64,000 nucleotides of DNA from assembly GCF_000260985.4 (NCBI RefSeq), contig NC_017857.3:2660924-2724923 (forward strand), written 5' to 3'. Every line of letters begins with the position of its first letter. Positions within the stretch are counted from its first letter, which is position 1. The position numbers and the translations under genes were made by a program. Positions 28,353 to 37,329 of this stretch are shown in pieces. The DNA is from Methylophaga nitratireducenticrescens (GTDB lineage: Bacteria; Pseudomonadota; Gammaproteobacteria; Nitrosococcales; Methylophagaceae). Under the pieces are notes generated by a model. That model saw only the letters and a list, made by a program, of their open reading frames with translations, was not told the origin of the DNA and ran no database searches.

Positions 28353-29243
28353 ATGTATGGTCTAGTTTTTGCTGTTGCTGCGTATGTCATTTGGGGTAGT
28401 TTCCCGCTTTATTTCAGTTATTTGAATAGTGTTTCAGCGGTTGAAGTGCTCTCACATCGGATACTATGGTCTCTACTAGCTACTTTGCTGGTAGGCCTTT
28501 TTCTTGGTCGTGGCCGTAAATTAGTCAAAACGTTCGCAGATAGAAAACTGCTCTTCTGGTTGGCATTATCCTCTTTGCTGATTGCGATAAATTGGTTGAT
28601 ATTCATCTGGGCAGTTTCACAACATCGAGTACTGGAGGCCAGTCTAGGATATTTCATTACTCCGGTAATGAGTCTGCTATTGGCGAGATGGTTGCTTAAG
28701 GAACAGTTGCATCCATTACAGGCCTGGGCTGGGGTTCTGGCCACCGTTGCTGTTTTATGGGAATGGTTCAGTCTCGGCAAGCTGCCTTGGGTGGGATTAT
28801 CCCTCGCTCTGGCATTTGCCCTTTATGGCCTCATCAGAAAAAAACATCCCGTGGATGGGGTCAACGGGCTGACCATTGAAACTTTGTGGCTGGCACCCTT
28901 AGCTTTGTTCTGGATTCTCTGGCAAGCATCAAACAGTGATTATAATCTCGTCTTTGGTGATACAGCACAATTGACCTTGTTATTAATTGGATCAGGCCTA
29001 CTGACCGCCTTACCGTTGGTTTTGTTCGCCATGGCCGCCACCCGTGTCGATTTATCCGTGGTGGGTTTTATTATGTATATCAACCCGTCAATTCAGTTTG
29101 TGATTGGGGTATATGTACTTAAAGAAGCTTACCCCCCGGAACGGTTGATTACCTTTGGAATAATCTGGATGGCATTGATCTTGTTTGTAGCAGGCATGTG
29201 GAAAAAATATCAACAGCACCAGGTTTCGGCATTTAGTCAGTAA
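28353..29243 (+). CDS. rarD: RarD-like EamA/DMT-family transporter
   Basis: Inner-membrane permease of the drug/metabolite transporter superfamily, 296 residues with ten predicted helices in two EamA halves. RarD features include YVIWGSFPLYFSYL in helix 1, SHRILWSLLATLLVG, NWLIFIWAVSQHRVLEASLG, and a C-terminal VGFIMYINPSIQFVIGVYVLKE. The substrate is unknown. The stop codon directly abuts an IS3 remnant on the opposite strand, so the last few codons may have been replaced at the junction. It could be an old chromosomal gene or part of the insert. Confidence 0.85.
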   Translation: MYGLVFAVAAYVIWGSFPLYFSYLNSVSAVEVLSHRILWSLLATLLVGLFLGRGRKLVKTFADRKLLFWLALSSLLIAINWLIFIWAVSQHRVLEASLGYFITPVMSLLLARWLLKEQLHPLQAWAGVLATVAVLWEWFSLGKLPWVGLSLALAFALYGLIRKKHPVDGVNGLTIETLWLAPLALFWILWQASNSDYNLVFGDTAQLTLLLIGSGLLTALPLVLFAMAATRVDLSVVGFIMYINPSIQFVIGVYVLKEAYPPERLITFGIIWMALILFVAGMWKKYQQHQVSAFSQ

Positions 29244-29689
29244 GAACTCATGTTTGAGAATACCGTTCACACGTTCTGCTAACGCATTTTGATAACAGTC
29301 ATACCCATCGGTCATAGAAGGTTTGATGGCATTGGCGTTAAGGTGGTTTTGGTATTCCTGTGAACAATACTGCACCCCTCGGTCAGAGTGATGAAGCAAT
29401 GGCTGTGTGCTCAGGCGATTTCGTATCGCCTGTTTTAAGGCCCGGCTAATATCTTTCACGGTCATCGTGTGTGAGACATCATGCCCCATGATCTTCAGAC
29501 GACAGCTCGTCCGAGTTTAATTCCATAGGCGTCAAACTTGGGCTTGAGCAGATGATACAGCTTCCGTGTGCCAAGCCGGGGCATAAAGCGCCGGATGTCT
29601 TGAACCATTTCCATCACTGGCTGCAAGGCAACTGCACGCTCGCAGAAGCGACTTTCAGCCTGATATATGGCTTGGCGGGAAAGTCCCAT
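29244..29689 (-). pseudogene. IS3 transposase orfB, internally deleted and 3'-truncated
   Basis: Two pieces of one integrase-type transposase. The first (29495-29689) has the HTH_21-like start MGLSRQAIYQAESRFC and breaks off after DAYGIKLGR. The second (about 29246-29495) resumes at KIMGHDVSHTM and runs through HHSDRGVQYCSQEYQNHL and ALAERVNGILKHEF. The expected 75-90 residues between them, with the first catalytic Asp, are missing and the frame changes at the join. The C-terminal RPH region is gone. It cannot be active. Confidence 0.85.
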
Positions 29690-29712
29690 GATGCGACATA
29701 ACCGGGTTAAGG

Positions 29713-30090
29713 TTATTTGAGCTTGGCTCTGGAGTTTCCTAACCCCATAGTGACAAGCTTTTTTCGCAGCTGGGTTCCTTGTGTCGTATCAATGTAATCA
29801 ATCATCTCATTGAGCACGAGATTTCTCAGCTTTTCATCCTCAAGCTGGCGTTCAAGCGCTTTTATTTGCTGTTCAGGTGTGGGATTGGTGTGAGTCATAG
29901 GCATTAACCTCAATGGATGCCAGTCTTGACGGCCATGTTTTCGAAGCCAAACGAGGACAGTACTTCGTCCTTGGATCCCATAATGAGCTTGTGCTTGCTT
30001 ATACGTCAACTCGCCTTTTTCTACCTGGTCAACAATGGCTAATTTAAAGGCCAATGTATAATCTCGTTGCGTACGTTTATGTCTTGACTT
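29713..30090 (-). pseudogene. IS3 transposase orfA, start codon lost
   Basis: DNA-binding small protein of an IS3 element. The frame reads KSRHKRTQRDYTLAFKLA and continues with the helix-turn-helix AQAHYGIQGRSTVLVWLRKHG and a C-terminal coiled-coil region. The codon before the first Lys is TAA where an ATG would be expected, so the native start seems mutated; a TTG at 30054 remains. It sits upstream of the orfB fragments in the usual frameshift arrangement. Confidence 0.75.
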
Positions 30091-30152: not shown

Positions 30153-30185
30153 TAAAAAAGCCGACCACAATTACTTGTGACCGGC
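30153..30185 (-). terminator. Intrinsic terminator of the porin operon
   Basis: On the minus strand an 11-bp stem with two G-U pairs (GCCGGTCACAA / TTGTGGTCGGC) closes a GTAA tetraloop and is followed by TTTTTT. It lies about 70 bp after the TorF-like porin stop, between that gene and the IS3 remnant. Confidence 0.88.
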
Positions 30186-30252: not shown

Positions 30253-31128
30253 CTAAAACGATTTTGAAACAGAGATTACATAACGTTCATCAACAATCTG
30301 ATGATTGTTATCAAAGCCGTAAAAATCGTGTTTTCCTTTCTTTATATCGGTATCGTGGTAACGCAAATCGACATTAAAGCCAAACACATTACGACTGATA
30401 CCTATGTTCCAATGCGTCCAGTCCAACTCTTCTTTGCCGTTGCCATTGGCATCCAGATTAGGGCCACTGTTATCAAAAAATTGATAGCCCAGACTACCTG
30501 ACAAAGTAAAACCGTGCGGTAATGTGTAGCTAGGGTGGATGGCAATATTATGTGACTGCAAATCTTCAACTCCGAACCAGTCAGTCAATGTCGGTGAATA
30601 CTCAAGCTTGATATTTACTTTGCCGAATTGTTTATCGACGTAGTTAAACATTTCCAGATAATTTGAATCGCGGTCGCCCGGATACACATACTGGAAAAAC
30701 ATACCGTTGTAGTTAACTCCGGTGTCGGCGATATCCTGAGTCGAATAACCCACATAAGGACCCCAGATAGCGTTAATTTTTGGATTATTGCCCTCGGAAT
30801 CATTACCGGGAAACATATTATTGGCAAGGTAATAACCGAGGTAAACGCCAGTATTATGTGTCCAGGTAATAGCACCTTTTAACGAGGGAATATCACCATC
30901 GTTGGTCTCTGATTCACCACGAAAGACATAATCAGAAGCAAATTCCACCCAAGTGGAAAACTTGCCACCAAAGACTTCCTCACGGTCTAAATAATCTACA
31001 AAAGCCACAGACTCTTTGGCTGCTTTTGCAGGGCCAACTTCAGCTTGTCCAGAATCTGCAAAACTGGCCGAGCTGATGACGGTACCGGTCATCAATAAAA
31101 CCAGGTGATTTAATTTAAAAGTTTTCAT
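30253..31128 (-). CDS. TorF-family (Gcw_chp) putative porin
   Basis: A 291-residue outer-membrane beta-barrel protein. It has a signal peptide (about 1-24, ending SSASFA), an acidic linker, then alternating aromatic strands beginning STWVEFASDYVFRGESET, with GVYLGYYLANNMF, NIKLEYSPTLTDWFG, GFTLSGSLGYQFFD and a C-terminal Phe (YVISVSKSF). The YVFRG-x-S/T motif near the barrel start is typical of the TorF/Gcw_chp group. It overlaps the end of the preceding secreted-protein gene by 4 bp, so the two are co-translated. The substrate is unknown. Confidence 0.85.
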   Translation of the reverse strand: MKTFKLNHLVLLMTGTVISSASFADSGQAEVGPAKAAKESVAFVDYLDREEVFGGKFSTWVEFASDYVFRGESETNDGDIPSLKGAITWTHNTGVYLGYYLANNMFPGNDSEGNNPKINAIWGPYVGYSTQDIADTGVNYNGMFFQYVYPGDRDSNYLEMFNYVDKQFGKVNIKLEYSPTLTDWFGVEDLQSHNIAIHPSYTLPHGFTLSGSLGYQFFDNSGPNLDANGNGKEELDWTHWNIGISRNVFGFNVDLRYHDTDIKKGKHDFYGFDNNHQIVDERYVISVSKSF

Positions 31129-32669
31129 TTAACATTTACCTCGTCAACGAGTGAGGCCTGAATAACCGGCCGGCAGGTAGAGAATTCTCCAGGCACCATG
31201 CCCTGAACGACTTCTGATACAGCGGGTTTTACAAAACTAACCGGCGGCTCTGCTGTTGGATAAGTCACGGTAATTTCCGCAGGCAGATCCTGGCTTTCGC
31301 TATTTTTAATGCCGCGTGAAGTGTTATAGGGATCGGTAAAAACACCGTAATGACCGGGCTGCATTTTGTAGGTCACTGTTTCAGTTCCCATACCTGCGTT
31401 AGCCAGATATTTATTTGGATCAGTCCAGTCACGGCCATCAAGGTTTGAATAAAACTTGATATCTACCAACAAGGCATCACAAAGTGGTGTGACTTCCTCA
31501 TAAGTTGTTGGCCACGATGAGCCACCCGAGGTGTCTGGATATCTTCCCCAGTCGCCACCTTTTAACGGGCAGGCACCACCAGAATCATACGAAGCCCGAT
31601 CCGGATGGTGAACGCCGTAGAGCGGCAGGCCGATTGCCTGACCAATATCGCCATTCTCTAAATGAAAACGCGGGGTTTTAGTAACAGTGCTTTTGAGCTC
31701 GGCACCCTTTCCACCCAGCGATTCAAAATAAGGCCCTGCCGGACGAATATACTGATGGTCCGTGTTATCCGGGTTGTCATACACCGCGGTCAGAAAAATA
31801 TACGGTTTATTAAAGAAAGTTCTTTCAACCAGATAAAACTCGCCTTTCGTTTTATCAGCATCAACCGCTTGCCAGTTAACATGCAATGCATCTTTGCCGG
31901 GTTGGCCAACATTTACCCACGAACGGGCATCGGGTAAATGATTCAACCGCAGGACTTTGGCGTAGTTTTCTTTTACATCTAGACCCGCCCGTTTCCCCAA
32001 TGGTCCAATCTGATTGGCGCCCGGCTGACTGAAAGCAAAATCCAGTGCCATTTTGGCGTAGGGATAATCATTGCCAGACATGGTGCAATAATAATTAGCC
32101 AAATCAATCGGCTCATGATCTGCATATTGCTGATCAAAAATCGGATGATTAATCGGCAAATCTACGAAATTTAATTTGCCCTCTTCATTAAACTTTTGAT
32201 CAGGATATTTATAGCCTGACCAACTTTCCTCTGGCAGGTAGTAGCTGTAGTTGTCTTCAATGTGCTGCTGATTTTCAACCGCCAGAATATCGGCAGCTTT
32301 ATCCAGACCCTGGCCATCTCTTTTCAGATAAAAGCGGACCGTGCCATTTTCCTGGATACGCCACAGGCCATGCTTACCCTCACCTATCATGGTGAACACC
32401 TGCTCAACCACGTTGACAAAACGGTAGGTGGAGTTGGTGCTCATATAACCGTAATAAACCGGCAGATGCGGGATCTGTGAATGGGTTTTATCCGGACGAC
32501 CAACGCCCAACAGCGATTTTTGTTTATTGTCCTCAGTGACCATTTGGTCAAAGGTATAAAAAAATGGATCGCCACCTGTCAGATCAATTATGTCTGCTGC
32601 ATGAATACTACCAACAGCAGTGATCGACAGGCTTAATGAAAGTATCTTGCTGAGTTTGATTTTGTTCAT
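31125..32669 (-). CDS. Secreted protein of unknown family (514 residues)
   Basis: I do not recognise this family. The start at 32669 has AAGGAG 7 bases upstream and gives MNKIKLSKILSLSLSITAVG, a clear signal peptide ending SIHAA; the frame is open 27 codons further but without a signal. The mature part is soluble-looking, rich in Tyr, Pro, Asp and Gly, with four Cys (CTMSGNDYPY, GGACPLKGGDW, TPLCDALL, STCRPVI) that could form disulfides. It has no lipobox or membrane span. It lies between a cupin gene (93 bp) and a porin gene (4-bp overlap), so it probably acts in the periplasm or outside with them. Confidence 0.7.
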   Translation of the reverse strand: MNKIKLSKILSLSLSITAVGSIHAADIIDLTGGDPFFYTFDQMVTEDNKQKSLLGVGRPDKTHSQIPHLPVYYGYMSTNSTYRFVNVVEQVFTMIGEGKHGLWRIQENGTVRFYLKRDGQGLDKAADILAVENQQHIEDNYSYYLPEESWSGYKYPDQKFNEEGKLNFVDLPINHPIFDQQYADHEPIDLANYYCTMSGNDYPYAKMALDFAFSQPGANQIGPLGKRAGLDVKENYAKVLRLNHLPDARSWVNVGQPGKDALHVNWQAVDADKTKGEFYLVERTFFNKPYIFLTAVYDNPDNTDHQYIRPAGPYFESLGGKGAELKSTVTKTPRFHLENGDIGQAIGLPLYGVHHPDRASYDSGGACPLKGGDWGRYPDTSGGSSWPTTYEEVTPLCDALLVDIKFYSNLDGRDWTDPNKYLANAGMGTETVTYKMQPGHYGVFTDPYNTSRGIKNSESQDLPAEITVTYPTAEPPVSFVKPAVSEVVQGMVPGEFSTCRPVIQASLVDEVNVK

Positions 32670-32762
32670 TTCTCTCTCCTTCAAAAAATAAGGATGTCTG
32701 CCAGCATTGTTATTATTATTTGCTGTTTTATTACTCAAACATCCCGGCAAATGGTTGTTGGA

Positions 32763-33203
32763 CTAGAACACTGTTCGCTGGCCACAAGCGAATGCCAGCC
32801 CTGAGCTATCAGTCGAAAAAGTGATGGTTGAACCATTCGGGAAGAACAAAACATCACCCGGCTTGGCTGATACTTCTTGTTTGCCATCGGAAAAAGTAAT
32901 ATTGCCTTCAAGCATGACTTTGATGTCATCGTAATCGTAGGTATAAACCAGAGGATTGCCCGCTTCGATTCTGAACAAACCGCATGAAATCGGTGACTGC
33001 GGATGACCGGAACCGACAATATCTTCAAAAAACGCTGCAACGCCCGGCTCTTCCATTGAAGAAAGCTCCATTTGCTGGGCATCGGGGAAAAACTTCAGGT
33101 TTTTACTGACCCCATCATGCTCAACCACACCATGTGCCAGGGCCATTGCACTAACTGTTAAACCTATAGCGGCAGCACCAATCATCGGTAATCTGATATT
33201 CAT
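32763..33203 (-). CDS. Exported cupin-fold protein (EutQ-like domain)
   Basis: A 146-residue protein with a signal peptide (about 1-23, ending SAMALA) and one cupin beta-barrel at about 75-140: YDYDDIKVMLEGNITFSDGK, then VSAKPGDVLFFPNGSTITFS. The motif resembles the EutQ-like cupin group but lacks the usual His-rich metal site, so metal binding is doubtful. It is the first gene of a three-gene leftward operon, with a good promoter upstream. A periplasmic ligand-binding role is inferred. Confidence 0.75.
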   Translation of the reverse strand: MNIRLPMIGAAAIGLTVSAMALAHGVVEHDGVSKNLKFFPDAQQMELSSMEEPGVAAFFEDIVGSGHPQSPISCGLFRIEAGNPLVYTYDYDDIKVMLEGNITFSDGKQEVSAKPGDVLFFPNGSTITFSTDSSGLAFACGQRTVF

Positions 33204-33307
33204 TTCTGTATCTCCAAAAATATTTAACTAAATGCATTCAATGATTTAGCAGATTTCATAGCTTCTGCTCTGTCACGTTCAGGAAAAAAGTCCTGCATGC
33301 GTTTTTA

Positions 33308-33337
33308 GTTATATTCCCGTCAAATATTACCTGTCAA
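33308..33337 (-). promoter_or_regulatory. Sigma-70-like promoter of the cupin operon
   Basis: On the minus strand TTGACA (33337-33332) and TATAAC (33313-33308) are separated by 18 bp, about 105 bp upstream of the cupin start. The -35 hexamer overlaps the first operator-like repeat at 33336, so a bound regulator would block it. Confidence 0.65.
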
Positions 33338-33367
33338 GTAATTTATTACTCATTAAGTAATTTACTC
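33336..33367. promoter_or_regulatory. Paired operator-like repeats between divergent promoters
   Basis: AAGTAATTTATTACTC (33336-33351) and AAGTAATTTACTC (33355-33367) form a direct repeat; AGTAATTTATTACT is itself an inverted repeat, and TTACT/AGTAA arms link the two. The block overlaps the cupin -35 and lies just before a TATAAT at 33370-33375 on the plus strand, which would serve the HTH-PAS gene. It is the natural binding site for that regulator (inference). Confidence 0.6.
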
Positions 33368-33369
33368 GC

Positions 33370-33375
33370 TATAAT
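33370..33375 (+). promoter_or_regulatory. Probable -10 element of the HTH-PAS gene
   Basis: A perfect TATAAT lies 83 bp upstream of the regulator start. The matching -35 region falls inside the repeat block and is poor (TTACTC), as in promoters under autoregulation. Confidence 0.5.
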
Positions 33376-33457
33376 AAAGACCTGAAATGTTCGTGCTAAC
33401 ATGCTTTGCGGCAGTTAGCTGATCACTGGAAATGGCCACAGGAGTTTTTGCAAAGCG

Positions 33458-34828
33458 ATGAAAAAAAACGGATTTGGCGAACGCCTGAAGGTATTGCTCA
33501 AACAAAAATCGTTGACCCAGGCACAGGTTGCCAAAGCGATTGGCACCTCTATTCCGTCCGTCAACAGATGGACCAAAGGTGGCGAGATTGAGTATGAAAA
33601 CCTGCGTTCTTTGGCTGATTTTCTGGAAATAAACTGGGTTTGGCTCAGATATGGTGATGAAGCCATCGAGAGCCTGCAATCGGATGCGCCTGATAATGGC
33701 CCGATGAAAGATCTTCGCCGCGAATATCTGAATCAGATCCTCGAAAACGAAGCCCGGATGAAAGCGGCCCTGGAAATGGCTCAAATAATTAATTGGGAAT
33801 GGAATGTGCTCACCGGTACCGTGACCTGCTCAGAAAACGCCACACAGCTTTTTGGCGTCACAGCAGATCATTTACCGAATTGCATGATGCCTTTCACACA
33901 ACTGCCACTGGAAGAATTAGTAACCACTTTTGGCAGCGGCCAGCCGCATGACTGGGATTTCGAAGTCATTGATGATACCGGGCAGACAAAATGGTTCTCA
34001 TCTCGTGCTGAGCTTATTTATGATGCAGCAAACCGGCCGATCAAAGTCATTGGTGTCAGCAGCGACATTACCGATCGTAAACAGGTCGAAATGGCGCTGG
34101 CACAAAGTGAATATATTCAAAAAAGAATTATCGACATTATTCCAGTCGGCCTTTGGGTAGCTGATGAAACCGGCAAAATCTGTCTGGCCAATCCAGAAGT
34201 AAAACGGATCTGGGGCGGCGCCAAATATGTTGGCCTAGAACATTATGGTGTGTACAAAGGTTGGTGGGAAAAAAACGGCAAAGAATTGGGCGCTGAAGGC
34301 TGGACATTGGCCCGCGCCGTTAAACATGGTGAAACCAGTGAACCGGAAGTCGTTAATATCGAAACTTTTGATGGGCACCAGCGCACAATTATTATGCACG
34401 CTACCCCGCTTAAAAATGCGGCGGGAGAAATTATCGGCGCGATTGAAGTTAATCAGGACATTACCGATCTAAAAAACACTGAGCGCACATTGATGACTGC
34501 ACTGGAGCAATGGCAAGCGGTGTTTGATCAGAATGAATTTGCGGTCATACAACTTGATGACAATCTGCAAATTAAAAAAGTCAGTGAAAAACTCAAACAA
34601 TCATTAAAAACTACTGCCAAATCAAAACAACTGACTGATTTGCTTGATACCGTTATCGCTGAAAAAATAATGCATCAGTTGGCTAATGCGCCAAGGCAGA
34701 CGCTCAGCAGTTTTCGTATTGATAATGCGATCTTAGCTGGCACGTGGCATCAACCCCCCATTTTTGTGCTCCATGATGAACGTCAGAATATAAAACCAAT
34801 GACCCTGATTTTTTTTCTTGAATGCTGA
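33458..34828 (+). CDS. XRE-type HTH regulator with PAS sensor domains
   Basis: A 456-residue cytoplasmic regulator. Residues about 5-62 form an XRE helix-turn-helix (LTQAQVAKAIGTSIPSVNRW). Then come a PAS domain (about 95-212, ending VIGVSSDITDRKQVE, the PAC signature), a second PAS domain (about 218-338, with DIIPVGLWVADETGKI and ending GAIEVNQDITDLKNTE) and a weaker PAS-like segment (about 345-450). No kinase or cyclase domain is present, so it should bind DNA directly in response to a small ligand or redox signal. It is divergent from the cupin/secreted protein/porin operon. A run of eight T lies near the 3' end; a slip there would change only the last few residues. Confidence 0.85.
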   Translation: MKKNGFGERLKVLLKQKSLTQAQVAKAIGTSIPSVNRWTKGGEIEYENLRSLADFLEINWVWLRYGDEAIESLQSDAPDNGPMKDLRREYLNQILENEARMKAALEMAQIINWEWNVLTGTVTCSENATQLFGVTADHLPNCMMPFTQLPLEELVTTFGSGQPHDWDFEVIDDTGQTKWFSSRAELIYDAANRPIKVIGVSSDITDRKQVEMALAQSEYIQKRIIDIIPVGLWVADETGKICLANPEVKRIWGGAKYVGLEHYGVYKGWWEKNGKELGAEGWTLARAVKHGETSEPEVVNIETFDGHQRTIIMHATPLKNAAGEIIGAIEVNQDITDLKNTERTLMTALEQWQAVFDQNEFAVIQLDDNLQIKKVSEKLKQSLKTTAKSKQLTDLLDTVIAEKIMHQLANAPRQTLSSFRIDNAILAGTWHQPPIFVLHDERQNIKPMTLIFFLEC

Positions 34829-35213: not shown

Positions 35214-35456
35214 ATGATAACTATATGCGCAGTCTCTTATGACACTTCAGCAGCAGCCTTTTACTTTAGTACAATCGCTGAATATAACGAAAAATATACT
35301 AAACGTTTACCTGTCGAAGAATATGAAATCCAATTCATTGACGGCGACAACCCAAAACTCTTCAGTGAAGCCGTCATCTGTCAAAGCAATCTTGAATTTT
35401 GGTTCGATTCACTTGCAGACCTTGATGACAACTCCGATGCTGGAATGAATGTTTGA
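35214..35456 (+). pseudogene. ardA: ArdA-like antirestriction protein, N-terminal fragment
   Basis: An 80-codon frame whose product (AAFYFSTIAEYNEKYTKRL, then EEYEIQFIDGDNPKLFSEAV) resembles the N-terminal half of ArdA-type antirestriction proteins, small acidic DNA mimics that inhibit type I restriction enzymes. It is acidic as expected. The natural sequence stops at about codon 75, where an IS3 transposase remnant begins in another frame; the last residues come from the insert. A matching C-terminal piece lies downstream. The family call is by pattern memory and needs a search. Confidence 0.55.
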
Positions 35457-35623
35457 ATCAACACTGGTTTAGAACACTGGACGAAGCCAAATATGAAATT
35501 GACTTGTGGCGGGAGCATTACAACCACATCCGACCGCATAGCTCATTGAATTACATGCCACCAGTTGAATACGCAAAACATGCCGCATAAAGTAACCAAA
35601 TATCATCTAAGGATTGGTACTAA
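35440..35623 (+). mobile_element. IS3-family remnant (transposase C-terminus) inside ardA
   Basis: A frame ending at TAA 35588-35590 reads NECLNQHWFRTLDEAKYEI, then WREHYNHIRPHSSLNYMPPV, the C-terminal end of an IS3-family integrase-type transposase including the RPHSSL motif. About 30 non-coding bases follow, probably the right end of the element. The rest of the element is missing. It differs from the remnant at 29.2-30.1 kb, whose RPH end is lost and whose orientation is opposite. Confidence 0.8.
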
Positions 35624-35855: not shown

Positions 35856-37061
35856 TTATCCAGCTTGAATAAATGGTAGTACCGCTGCTCCAGCCGTTAG
35901 TCCATCTAGATAATTTGCCCACGATTGCATCATCCTTTTACGTTCGGACAAATACTCAGCATAGTTATAAGCTGCCCTAACCCCATCACGCTCACTGTGG
36001 GCTAGTTGCCTTTCGATTGCATCACGGTTCCAGCCTTGCTCGTTCAAAATGGTAGAGGCCATACTTCGGAAGCCATGCCCCACCATTTCATCACCCGTAT
36101 AACCAAGCCGTCTTAGAGCGCCGTTTACGGTGTTTTCGCTCATTGGTCTTGTGATGGTGCGTATTGAGGGGAAAAGATACTTTCCTGAGCCTGTGAGGGG
36201 CTTTAATGTTTCGATAACGGCGATTGCTTGTTTAGATAGCGGGACGATATGAACTGAGGCCATTTTCATTTTTTCGGCAGGTATACGCCATTCGGCTTTT
36301 TCTAAATCAAACTCAGTCCATTCGGCATGTCTTAATTCACCTGGACGTACAAAAACTAGCGGGGCTAGTCGTAGCGCACAAAGAGTCACAAAAGAGCCTG
36401 AATAGCCATTTATGGCCCTTAAAAGTCCGCCGATCTGCTTTGGTTCAATTATTGACGCATGATGCTTGACCTTTACAGGCGGTAATGCACCTTTCAAGTC
36501 AGTGGAGGGATCGCGCTCTGCTCTGCCAGTTGCAACGGCATAACGGAAAATCTGTCCACATTTCTGATGAACTCTGTGGGCTGTTTCTAAAATACCTCGG
36601 CTTTCCATTCTTCTCAGCACCGCCAACAATTCTGGTGCTTTAATATCGTTAATATTTTTTGAGCCAATGAAGGGAAACACTTCTCTTTCAAGACGGCTGA
36701 TCGTATTGAGCGCGTATTTTTCTGACCAACGATGCCGAAATTTTTGATGCCATTCACGGGCAACAAACTCAAAGCTTAACTGACCAGCATTTAACTGCTT
36801 TTCAGCCTTGCGAATATCGGAAGGATCGACACCATTGGCAATCTGCTTTCTTAATTCATCCCGTTGCTCTCTTGCCTGCTTAAGACCAACATCAGGATAG
36901 GTGCCAACAGATAATCTTTTTTGCTTTCCATCAAAACGGAATTTGAATCGCCACCATTTTCCGCCGGTAGTAGACACCTCTATGTACAAGCCCTTTTCAT
37001 CCGATACGGCGTAAAGCTTATCCTTTGGTTTTAGTGCTTTTATCTTCACATCGGTCAGCAT
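35856..37061 (-). CDS. Tyrosine-recombinase integrase (P4-type, DUF4102 N-terminus)
   Basis: Site-specific recombinase of the kind that inserts islands into tRNA genes; 401 residues. The N-terminal DUF4102 arm-binding domain covers about 3-85 (LYIEVSTTGGKWWRFKFRFD), a SAM-like core-binding domain about 98-180, and the catalytic domain follows with all key residues: Arg239 (VRPGELR), His329 and Arg332 (HGFRS), His355 (AHSERDG) and Tyr365 (AAYNYAEYL). It appears intact. Its start lies 165 bp from the 3' end of tRNA-Leu and it reads away from it, the usual layout for an element integrated at that tRNA. Confidence 0.92.
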   Translation of the reverse strand: MLTDVKIKALKPKDKLYAVSDEKGLYIEVSTTGGKWWRFKFRFDGKQKRLSVGTYPDVGLKQAREQRDELRKQIANGVDPSDIRKAEKQLNAGQLSFEFVAREWHQKFRHRWSEKYALNTISRLEREVFPFIGSKNINDIKAPELLAVLRRMESRGILETAHRVHQKCGQIFRYAVATGRAERDPSTDLKGALPPVKVKHHASIIEPKQIGGLLRAINGYSGSFVTLCALRLAPLVFVRPGELRHAEWTEFDLEKAEWRIPAEKMKMASVHIVPLSKQAIAVIETLKPLTGSGKYLFPSIRTITRPMSENTVNGALRRLGYTGDEMVGHGFRSMASTILNEQGWNRDAIERQLAHSERDGVRAAYNYAEYLSERKRMMQSWANYLDGLTAGAAVLPFIQAG

Positions 37062-37111: not shown

Positions 37112-37163
37112 AATAAATGGTACATGTCAAGGGATGTGATGGGACGTTATGATATGACAGACA

Positions 37164-37190
37164 CAAAAAAACCCGTTATAAAACGGGCTT
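37164..37190 (-). terminator. Intrinsic terminator downstream of tRNA-Leu
   Basis: On the minus strand the stem CCCGT/ACGGG with a short A/T loop (37172-37187) is followed by seven T. It lies about 40 bp beyond the tRNA 3' end and would end the secG-leuU transcript before the integrase gene. Confidence 0.75.
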
Positions 37191-37225
37191 TTAGGTACTA
37201 CTTGCGACATTATGAAATGTCTAAT

Positions 37226-37310
37226 TGGTGCCGTCGGCCGGAGTCGAACCGGCACACCCTAAGGCACTACCCCCTCAAGATAGCGTGTCTACCAATTTCA
37301 CCACGACGGC
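37226..37310 (-). tRNA. leuU: tRNA-Leu (GAG anticodon)
   Basis: An 85-base long-variable-arm tRNA with encoded CCA. Acceptor arms GCCGTCG/CGACGGC pair fully; the D-arm region GGTGAAATTGGTAGACAC, the anticodon loop CTTGAGG with GAG, and the T-loop GGTTCGACTCC are all standard for tRNA-Leu. It follows secG by 19 bp on the same strand, the conserved secG-leuU order, and is the apparent integration target of the adjacent integrase. Confidence 0.96.
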
Positions 37311-37329
37311 AATTTGATTGAGGCATATT

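What the first reader, a model, noticed from the sequence alone, without database searches (positions are those of the whole stretch)
30253..34828. Candidate new system: three exported proteins under a divergent HTH-PAS switch
A leftward operon encodes a periplasmic cupin, an unrecognised 514-residue secreted protein with four Cys, and a TorF-type porin (4-bp overlap between the last two). A rightward gene encodes an XRE-HTH protein with two or three PAS domains and no enzymatic output. Good divergent promoter elements flank a paired repeat that overlaps the operon -35. The design suggests that a small ligand or redox signal read by PAS controls an envelope uptake or processing device. I know no described system with this composition.
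Basis: partly seen in the sequence, partly recalled or inferred. Interest (0 to 1): 0.75.

Follow-up and report, generated by a model that had tools for sequence, protein, structure and literature searches.

The report
Secreted one-carbon module, unknown core protein
Some methanol-eating and marine bacteria share a switchable set of exported proteins, built around a large protein unlike any known one, that in several lineages sits beside genes for breaking down methylated amines and formaldehyde and may carry out an undescribed step of one-carbon metabolism outside the cytoplasm.

Summary
A leftward operon (33203-30253) encodes an exported EutQ-like cupin, an exported 514-aa protein ('S514') and a TorF-type porin. 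A divergent XRE-HTH/PAS gene lies beside it, and an operator overlaps the operon's -35. S514 matches nothing in Pfam, NCBIfam, PHROGs or the PDB, by sequence, profile or fold of two middling models.

The set is conserved but rare: 9 of 63 genomes of the order, and 46 loci elsewhere. Within the order, cupin orthologues occur in exactly those 9 genomes and the HTH-PAS gene only among them. The operator is in 13 of 13 HTH-PAS loci and 0 of 32 others tested; 12 of those have a LuxR-type regulator instead.

Function gains a direction. In some lineages S514 adjoins trimethylamine dehydrogenase, sarcosine-oxidase-type, DmmD/Tdm-like or formaldehyde-oxidation genes. The cupin's shorter paralogue sits in Methylophaga dimethylamine-monooxygenase clusters, and a 2015 paper proposed a methylated-amine role for EutQ cupins.

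Best reading: an inducible envelope module that demethylates a small methylated compound or handles its formaldehyde. Reaction and substrate are inferred; 34 of 42 carriers have no GCV_T neighbour, and the window's own genome lacks the amine pathways tested.

The parts
32763..33203 (-). Exported EutQ-like cupin (146 aa), first gene of the operon
   Evidence: Pfam EutQ 39.5 bits. In 29 aligned cupins the two Cys (74, 140) are invariant and no conserved His metal ligands were seen. Orthologues in exactly the 9 S514 genomes of 62.
31125..32669 (-). S514: exported 514-aa protein of unknown family, the core of the module
   Evidence: No family, PDB sequence or fold match; 46 relatives at 48-87% identity in best segment.
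30253..31128 (-). TorF-family outer-membrane porin (291 aa), overlaps S514 by 4 bases
   Evidence: TIGR02001 143 bits over cut-off; next to S514 in 8 of 8 relatives from the order that were fetched.
33458..34828 (+). XRE-HTH regulator with two PAS domains (456 aa), divergent
   Evidence: HTH_3 plus PAS_4/PAS_9; 7 of 62 order genomes, all 7 being S514 carriers.
33327..33349 (-). Operator GTAATNNATTACTTGACNNGTAA
   Evidence: 13 of 13 HTH-PAS loci with 0-3 mismatches; best 5-8 mismatches in 32 loci without it; single copy in the genome.
33332..33337 (-). -35 hexamer TTGACA of the operon promoter, inside the operator
   Evidence: Sequence; aligned in 13 regions.
33308..33313 (-). -10 hexamer TATAAC of the operon promoter (18-base spacer)
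   Evidence: Sequence; conserved TATA in the alignment.
33370..33375 (+). Possible -10 hexamer TATAAT of the regulator gene (weak -35)
   Evidence: Sequence only; not well conserved.
30160..30185 (-). Terminator-like hairpin with T-run after the porin gene
   Evidence: 11 pairs, 6 G-C, loop 4.

Best explanation
This is an inducible envelope module of one-carbon metabolism. The TorF-type porin lets a small methylated compound (most likely a methylated amine) into the periplasm. S514, with the periplasmic cupin as companion, takes a methyl group off it and releases formaldehyde, or holds and processes the formaldehyde, which the cell then assimilates or oxidises. The HTH-PAS protein sits on the operator over the operon's -35 and represses it until its PAS domains sense the substrate or a product. 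Shown: gene order, co-inheritance, regulator-operator pairing, absence of detectable known relatives, and, in several lineages, neighbourhood with methylated-amine and formaldehyde genes. Export is read from the N-terminal sequences. Inferred: that S514 is an enzyme, its reaction, the substrate, the direction of regulation and the role of the porin.
For: (1) Neighbours of S514. In Methylophaga sp. OBS4 (L020) a trimethylamine dehydrogenase gene lies 2.0 kb beyond the porin, on the other strand (1122 bits over 2-735 to solved TMADH 1djn, next best molecule histamine dehydrogenase 526). Sarcosine oxidase soxB and soxA over cut-off in L059, the same cluster in L062; soxBDAG-like genes below the cut-offs in L040 (scanned) and L042 (same clusters), which I read as mgd-type because mgs-like genes stand beyond S514. 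Stand-alone H4F-binding GcvT-like genes in L049, L052, L055 and L057; L052 and L055 match the C-terminal part of TMAO demethylase better than GcvT (300 v 219, 277 v 199 bits), L049 matches both equally (259 v 261) and is nearest to Methylophaga DmmD among the seven compared (268 bits). frmA-frmB-S514 in one direction in L050 (over cut-off). A GCV_T gene lies within 5 kb of S514 in at least 8 of 42 carriers where 0.88 is expected; collapsed by eye to 24 lineages, 5 against 0.50, Poisson P 2e-4. (2) The cupin. A second, shorter class (38-45% identity) occurs in 13 of 62 order genomes. In all 13 stretches it lies with the same three regulator-type genes, with dmmD in 12 and dmmD plus the three other dmm genes in 11 (L077 is cut by contig ends, L074 has dmmD alone plus a TMADH) (DmmA family over cut-off). 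(3) Print: DmmD binds H4F and is thought to capture formaldehyde (PMC5520151, Discussion read); small EutQ cupins near Mao, Tmo and Tmd genes were proposed to act in methylated-amine oxidation (PMC5023230, passages). (4) Carriers include many methylotroph genera. (5) In nine loci S514 is followed by a MauG/MbnH-like protein (L040 scanned, below NCBIfam cut-offs, just over the Pfam one; two CXXCH in all nine).
Against: The window's own genome has no NMG synthase match at 1e-50, no methylamine dehydrogenase light chain, no FrmA, one weak GCV_T gene and no dmm-type cupin, so an amine substrate would not link up with a known amine pathway there. NMG synthase C matched in 24 of 42 carriers, five of these 24 only at 39-44% identity; mauA in 8 of 40. 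FrmA is in none of the 9 carriers of the order. 34 of 42 carriers show no GCV_T gene within 5 kb, and by eye I recognised no C1 gene in the flanks of L019, L022, L024, L025, L031, L017 or L018. The two lines of evidence come mostly from different loci: of the 9 loci without the cupin, six have the GCV_T neighbour and one frmAB, while of the 38 with it only L040 and L042 have GCV_T and L020 has TMADH. The GCV_T neighbours come from few lineages. No catalytic motif, cofactor site or fold of S514 was identified. That the regulator represses rests on operator position alone.
Confidence: 0.43

Rival explanations
1. Formaldehyde defence at the envelope: S514 and the cupin bind or oxidise formaldehyde that is made in or diffuses into the periplasm (methanol dehydrogenase, demethylases), and make none themselves; the regulator senses formaldehyde or its stress.
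For: Fits the FrmA-FrmB neighbour in Algicola, the YqhD-like aldehyde-type reductase (PRK15138, 451 bits, below its cut-off of 645) convergent with S514 in Enterovibrio norvegicus, occurrence in Vibrionaceae, and the lack of the tested amine pathways in the window's own genome.
Against: Does not need a porin; formaldehyde crosses membranes freely (general knowledge). A general defence would be expected in more methylotrophs than 9 of 63 order genomes.
Confidence: 0.24
2. Periplasmic catabolism of a methylated compound that is not an amine (ester, sulfur compound, formamide), feeding C1 units; the amine neighbours are shared only because both yield formaldehyde.
For: Formamidase and an amide transporter lie about 6 kb from S514 on the Paracoccus plasmid; a MauG-like partner recalls the SCO1/MauG partner of methanethiol oxidase (PMC6548844 passages).
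Against: The cupin, GcvT-like and TMADH links are to amine genes specifically.
Confidence: 0.16
3. An envelope or surface protein without a C1 role, spread by horizontal transfer and placed by chance beside C1 genes in methylotrophs.
For: Patchy spread; in the window the module lies between IS3 remnants and a P4-type integrase at tRNA-Leu; S514 of the window and of Methylophaga sp. UBA3192 groups with Vibrionaceae apart from the other Methylophaga (96/92 support); most carriers have no GCV_T neighbour.
Against: Excess of GCV_T neighbours over expectation and the independent cupin-dmm linkage.
Confidence: 0.15

Closest known systems
Dimethylamine monooxygenase cluster dmmDABC with its EutQ-like cupin (Methylophaga; dmm in Ruegeria pomeroyi, PMC5520151)
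   Same: Same cupin family (38-45% identity) and, in some S514 loci, a DmmD/Tdm-C-like H4F-binding gene.
   Different: S514 is exported and unrelated in sequence to the Dmm subunits; no DmmA-family, reductase or 348-aa dmm match in the 47 S514 loci at 1e-10.
EutQ-like cupins near Mao, Tmo and Tmd genes of Arthrobacter and Mycobacterium (PMC5023230)
   Same: Small EutQ-like cupin beside methylated-amine oxidation genes.
   Different: Here the cupin carries a signal sequence and two invariant Cys and is tied to S514. The sequences of that paper were not compared.
TorF/Gcw_chp porins (TIGR02001)
   Same: The third gene is a member over the curated cut-off.
   Different: Role with S514 undescribed in the searches made.
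Methanethiol oxidase with SCO1/MauG maturation partner (Methylophaga thiooxydans, PMC6548844 passages)
   Same: Exported C1 protein followed by a MauG-like gene, as S514 is in nine loci.
   Different: S514 has no Pfam match to that family; the MauG-like partner is absent in the window.

Membership tests
EutQ-like cupins of methylated-amine clusters | EutQ-type cupin domain | tested here: met
   Pfam EutQ over gathering score; NCBIfam EutQ equivalog cut-off not reached.
EutQ-like cupins of methylated-amine clusters | Gene beside a methylated-amine oxidation gene | tested here: inconclusive
   Not met in the window; met in L020 (TMADH), probably in L040 and L042, and for the paralogue.
TorF family putative porin (TIGR02001) | Profile score over curated cut-off, exported beta-barrel | tested here: met
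   143 against 47 bits; barrel itself not modelled.
XRE repressor with local operator | HTH_3 domain and a repeat operator that co-occurs with the gene | tested here: met
   The pattern was drawn from the window and 12 of the 13 loci, so the controls are L061 (not used; 2 mismatches), the 0 of 32 others and the single genomic site.
XRE repressor with local operator | Binding and repression | not testable with these tools
   Needs a gel shift and a reporter assay.
Dimethylamine monooxygenase (Dmm) or TMAO demethylase (Tdm) | DmmABC homologues, or DUF1989 plus GcvT domain, in the module | tested here: not met
   No dmmABC match in S514 loci; no Pfam match to such domains in S514.
N-methylglutamate pathway | mgsABC, gmaS, mgdABCD in the genome | tested here: not met
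   Own genome has no MgsC match at 1e-50; gmaS itself not searched.
Methylamine dehydrogenase (mau) | MauA light chain in the genome | tested here: not met
   PF02975: none in own genome, 8 of 40 genomes searched.
MbnP/MopE-type substrates of MauG-like enzymes | Sequence or fold match, MauG-like partner | tested here: not met
   No PDB or fold match; partner in 9 of 47 loci only, not in the window.

The most novel reading that the evidence does not exclude
S514 founds a new enzyme family with a fold not yet in the PDB that oxidatively demethylates small methylated amines outside the cytoplasm. In some lineages it would carry a protein-derived cofactor installed by the MauG-like di-haem partner. 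It would be a periplasmic entry route to methylotrophy, parallel to the cytoplasmic Tmm, Tdm, Dmm and NMG steps.
Probability: 0.15. Interest if true: 0.88.

Novelty: new variant of a known kind. Interest (0 to 1): 0.6.

Why it matters
Methylated amines and formaldehyde are central to marine carbon, nitrogen and aerosol chemistry. Their known demethylating steps are, apart from the periplasmic methylamine dehydrogenase, cytoplasmic (general knowledge). A conserved, regulated, exported protein family with no detectable known relative, carried by methylotrophs and marine bacteria and in several lineages sitting beside methylated-amine or formaldehyde genes, would point to an unrecognised extracytoplasmic step. 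It also offers a way to test the open role of EutQ-like cupins in methylated-amine oxidation, since the cupin here is exported and set apart from the cytoplasmic enzymes.

Tried and rejected
S514 as a known enzyme family: rejected after Pfam (a 13.9-bit hit to Prok-E2_E, cut-off 25; of 38 members scanned, three families each hit by one member at E 0.02-0.08), NCBIfam, PHROGs, PDB phmmer and profile search.

S514 by fold: two AlphaFold models from different members (pLDDT 70.7 and 71.0, pTM 0.76 and 0.77) gave no Foldseek hit at E 0.001 (best 0.078 and 0.34) and no VIA-align Z of 2 or more among 999 chains each. Weak START/Bet v1-like rows were not taken as a relationship. Model accuracy is middling, and most of the conserved Gly-rich stretch 363-389 has pLDDT under 50.

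Phage origin: none of 10 pattern matches in viral contigs encodes a relative.

Methylamine (NMG or mau) as the fixed partner: rejected for the window genome. FrmA as a co-inherited partner in the order: not seen.

Excision repeats around the integrase: no exact direct repeat of 13 bases or more of the stretch 37150-37314 in the window.

Literature: ten searches, several aimed at neighbouring topics, listed no paper that I recognised as describing S514 or the cupin-S514-porin set; an unnamed protein is hard to find by words. Most papers were seen as listings. The M. thiooxydans DMS/methanol proteome paper was seen as passages only, and its supplementary tables of hypothetical proteins could not be opened, so expression data for S514 may exist in print.

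Count caveats: antisense ORFs in GC-rich loci hid S514 in 4 of 47 loci (L010, L043, L045, L064) and some cupins in the clustering (33 of 47); a recount by tblastn gives cupin 38, porin 13 (plus L058 by family) and HTH-PAS 13 of 47. The LuxR-type (12) and MauG-like (9) counts rest on the clustering and are lower bounds. Neighbour genes were read by eye where no profile is named; the print was cut, so parts of L038 and neighbours were not read. The 42-genome tests left out L053, L054, L060 and L061 (partial or at contig ends); the mau search also left out L044, L055 and L063. The list was capped; the distances behind the 8 of 42 count were read by eye and typed into.


Full report
The sequence. 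The window lies in a 3.135-Mb single-contig genome. Four genes form the feature: leftward cupin (32763-33203), S514 (31125-32669) and TorF-type porin (30253-31128, 4-base overlap), and rightward HTH-PAS (33458-34828). A hairpin with a T-run closes the operon.

The switch. The operon promoter is TTGACA-18-TATAAC. Its -35 lies inside GTAATNNATTACTTGACNNGTAA, alternating TTAC/GTAA half-sites. Alignment of 13 intergenic regions, window included, shows this as the best conserved block. The pattern is present in 13 of 13 fetched HTH-PAS loci, with 0-3 mismatches (one of them, L061, was not used to draw it), in the window itself, and in none of 12 LuxR-regulator loci or 20 loci where neither regulator was found (best 5-8 mismatches; L054 and L060 not tested). 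It occurs once in the genome at up to 3 mismatches. The HTH-PAS gene occurs in 7 of 62 order genomes, all of them among the 9 S514 carriers (Fisher P 7e-8, relatedness not corrected). A site over the -35 suggests repression; that is inference. Where the HTH-PAS gene is missing, 12 loci have a LuxR/GerE-type gene, mostly of about 260 aa, so the sensor has been exchanged while the exported set stayed. On the S514 tree, where 11 inner branches are poorly supported, the three regulator states need 8 changes, the two named regulators alone 2.

The core protein. S514 relatives were found in 9 of 63 genomes of the order, in 1 of 398 genomes sampled from the phylum, the window's own, and at 46 loci in the GTDB-based collection (a pattern-based scan, so a lower bound), plus a Paracoccus plasmid where it is annotated 'hypothetical protein'. 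Identity to the window protein is 50-87% across very different hosts. Three Cys (195, 367, 397), two His (100, 355) and three Trp (103, 251, 415) are invariant in 38 of 38 sequences. No sequence, profile or fold relative was found. The two models are of middling confidence, so 'new fold' is possible but not shown.

Composition across lineages. Of 47 loci (46 plus the plasmid), the cupin is near S514 in 38, the porin in 13 plus one by family (L058), HTH-PAS in 13, LuxR-type in 12 and a MauG/MbnH-like di-haem gene in 9. In the order, all 8 relatives fetched besides the window have cupin, S514 and porin together, and 6 of the 8 also have HTH-PAS. Cupin orthologues (51% identity or more) occur in exactly the 9 S514 genomes of 62.

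What it is near. In Methylophaga sp. OBS4 (L020) a trimethylamine dehydrogenase gene (1122 bits to solved TMADH) lies 2.0 kb beyond the porin on the other strand, with two other genes between. L059 has soxB and soxA over the sarcosine-oxidase cut-offs just downstream of S514, and L062 the same cluster. In L040 and L042 the cupin-S514-MauG-like set lies between soxBDAG-like genes (below cut-offs in L040) and an ammonium-transporter-like gene followed by mgs-like genes; mgd and mgs are my reading. L049, L052, L055 and L057 have a stand-alone GcvT-like gene adjacent, and L050 has frmA-frmB-S514 in one direction. Counting GCV_T genes in whole genomes, at least 8 of 42 carriers have one within 5 kb of S514 where 0.88 is expected, or 5 of 24 lineages where 0.50 is expected. 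Against this, 34 of 42 have none there, the other Methylophaga-family flanks that I read show no C1 gene by eye, the GCV_T neighbours are mostly in loci without the cupin, and the window's own genome lacks NMG synthase, mauA, FrmA, the dmm-type cupin and all but one weak GCV_T gene.

The cupin gives an independent clue. A shorter class of the same cupin, without a signal sequence in the one checked (L067), is found in 13 of 62 order genomes. All 13 stretches were fetched: the cupin sits with a PAS protein and NarX/NarL-like genes in all, with dmmD in 12 and dmmD plus the DmmA-family, reductase and 348-aa genes in 11; one stretch is cut by contig ends and one has dmmD alone, with a TMADH gene nearby. 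DmmD is an H4F-binding protein thought to capture formaldehyde from DMA demethylation (PMC5520151, Discussion). A 2015 comparative study noted small EutQ cupins of unknown function beside Mao, Tmo and Tmd genes and proposed a role in methylated-amine oxidation (PMC5023230, passages). Thus the companion protein and the recurring neighbours of S514 point to methylated-amine and formaldehyde chemistry by two routes.

Explanation. The reading I prefer is an inducible envelope module in which S514 and its cupin act on a small methylated compound, or on the formaldehyde it yields, with a porin for entry in many of the proteobacterial methylotrophs and a MauG-like partner in the sponge-symbiont type. 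Operon structure, operator pairing, co-inheritance and neighbourhood are shown; export is read from N-terminal sequences. Enzyme activity, substrate, repression and the porin's role are inferred. I give 0.43 to this reading, 0.24 to formaldehyde defence alone, 0.16 to a methylated non-amine substrate, and 0.15 to no C1 role.

Comparison. As a system it resembles other substrate-induced porin-plus-periplasmic-protein operons, and by its cupin it joins the proposed methylated-amine companions; hence 'new variant of a known kind'. The core protein itself has no known kind. It fails membership in Dmm, Tdm, NMG and mau systems where tested.

Noticed in passing
window 29088-30054 (-) and 35453-35590 (+): IS3-type remnants flank the module on both sides: OrfA plus OrfB in two broken pieces on the left (the larger piece matched the IS3 transposase profile; the others by eye), a transposase tail fragment on the right by eye.
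   Followed up: partly
window 35856-37061 (-), 37226-37310 (-): P4-type tyrosine integrase next to tRNA-Leu(gag); no exact direct repeat of 13 bases or more of the tRNA region elsewhere in the window, so island ends are not defined.
   Followed up: partly
window about 33390-33402 and matching places in most HTH-PAS loci: A second conserved element, AT-N-TTAGCACGAA read towards the operon, lies on the regulator side of the intergenic region; its role is unknown.
   Followed up: no
L067-L079: In Methylophaga a short EutQ-like cupin, a PAS protein and a NarX/NarL-like pair are regularly found with dmm genes; I saw no description of this cupin there (one search for dimethylamine monooxygenase plus cupin).
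   Followed up: partly
L039-L042, L044-L047, L063: MauG/MbnH-like di-haem protein (about 560 aa, two CXXCH) directly downstream of S514 in sponge-symbiont and other gammaproteobacterial MAGs; in L049 a vanadium-haloperoxidase-like gene takes that place.
   Followed up: partly
L021:10010-13993 and L039:30-1211: A membrane-type protein without an NCBIfam match (50% identical between the two loci) lies near S514; in L021 it stands with a ferredoxin-reductase, a globin-like (by eye) and a MetX-like gene, which suggests a monooxygenase operon.
   Followed up: no
L055: Contig filed under a Bifidobacterium breve MAG carries an S514 93% identical to one from a Thermoleophilia MAG; the bin label looks wrong.
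   Followed up: no
L059:6899-8330: S514 is split into two reading frames here, possibly a frameshift or an assembly error.
   Followed up: no
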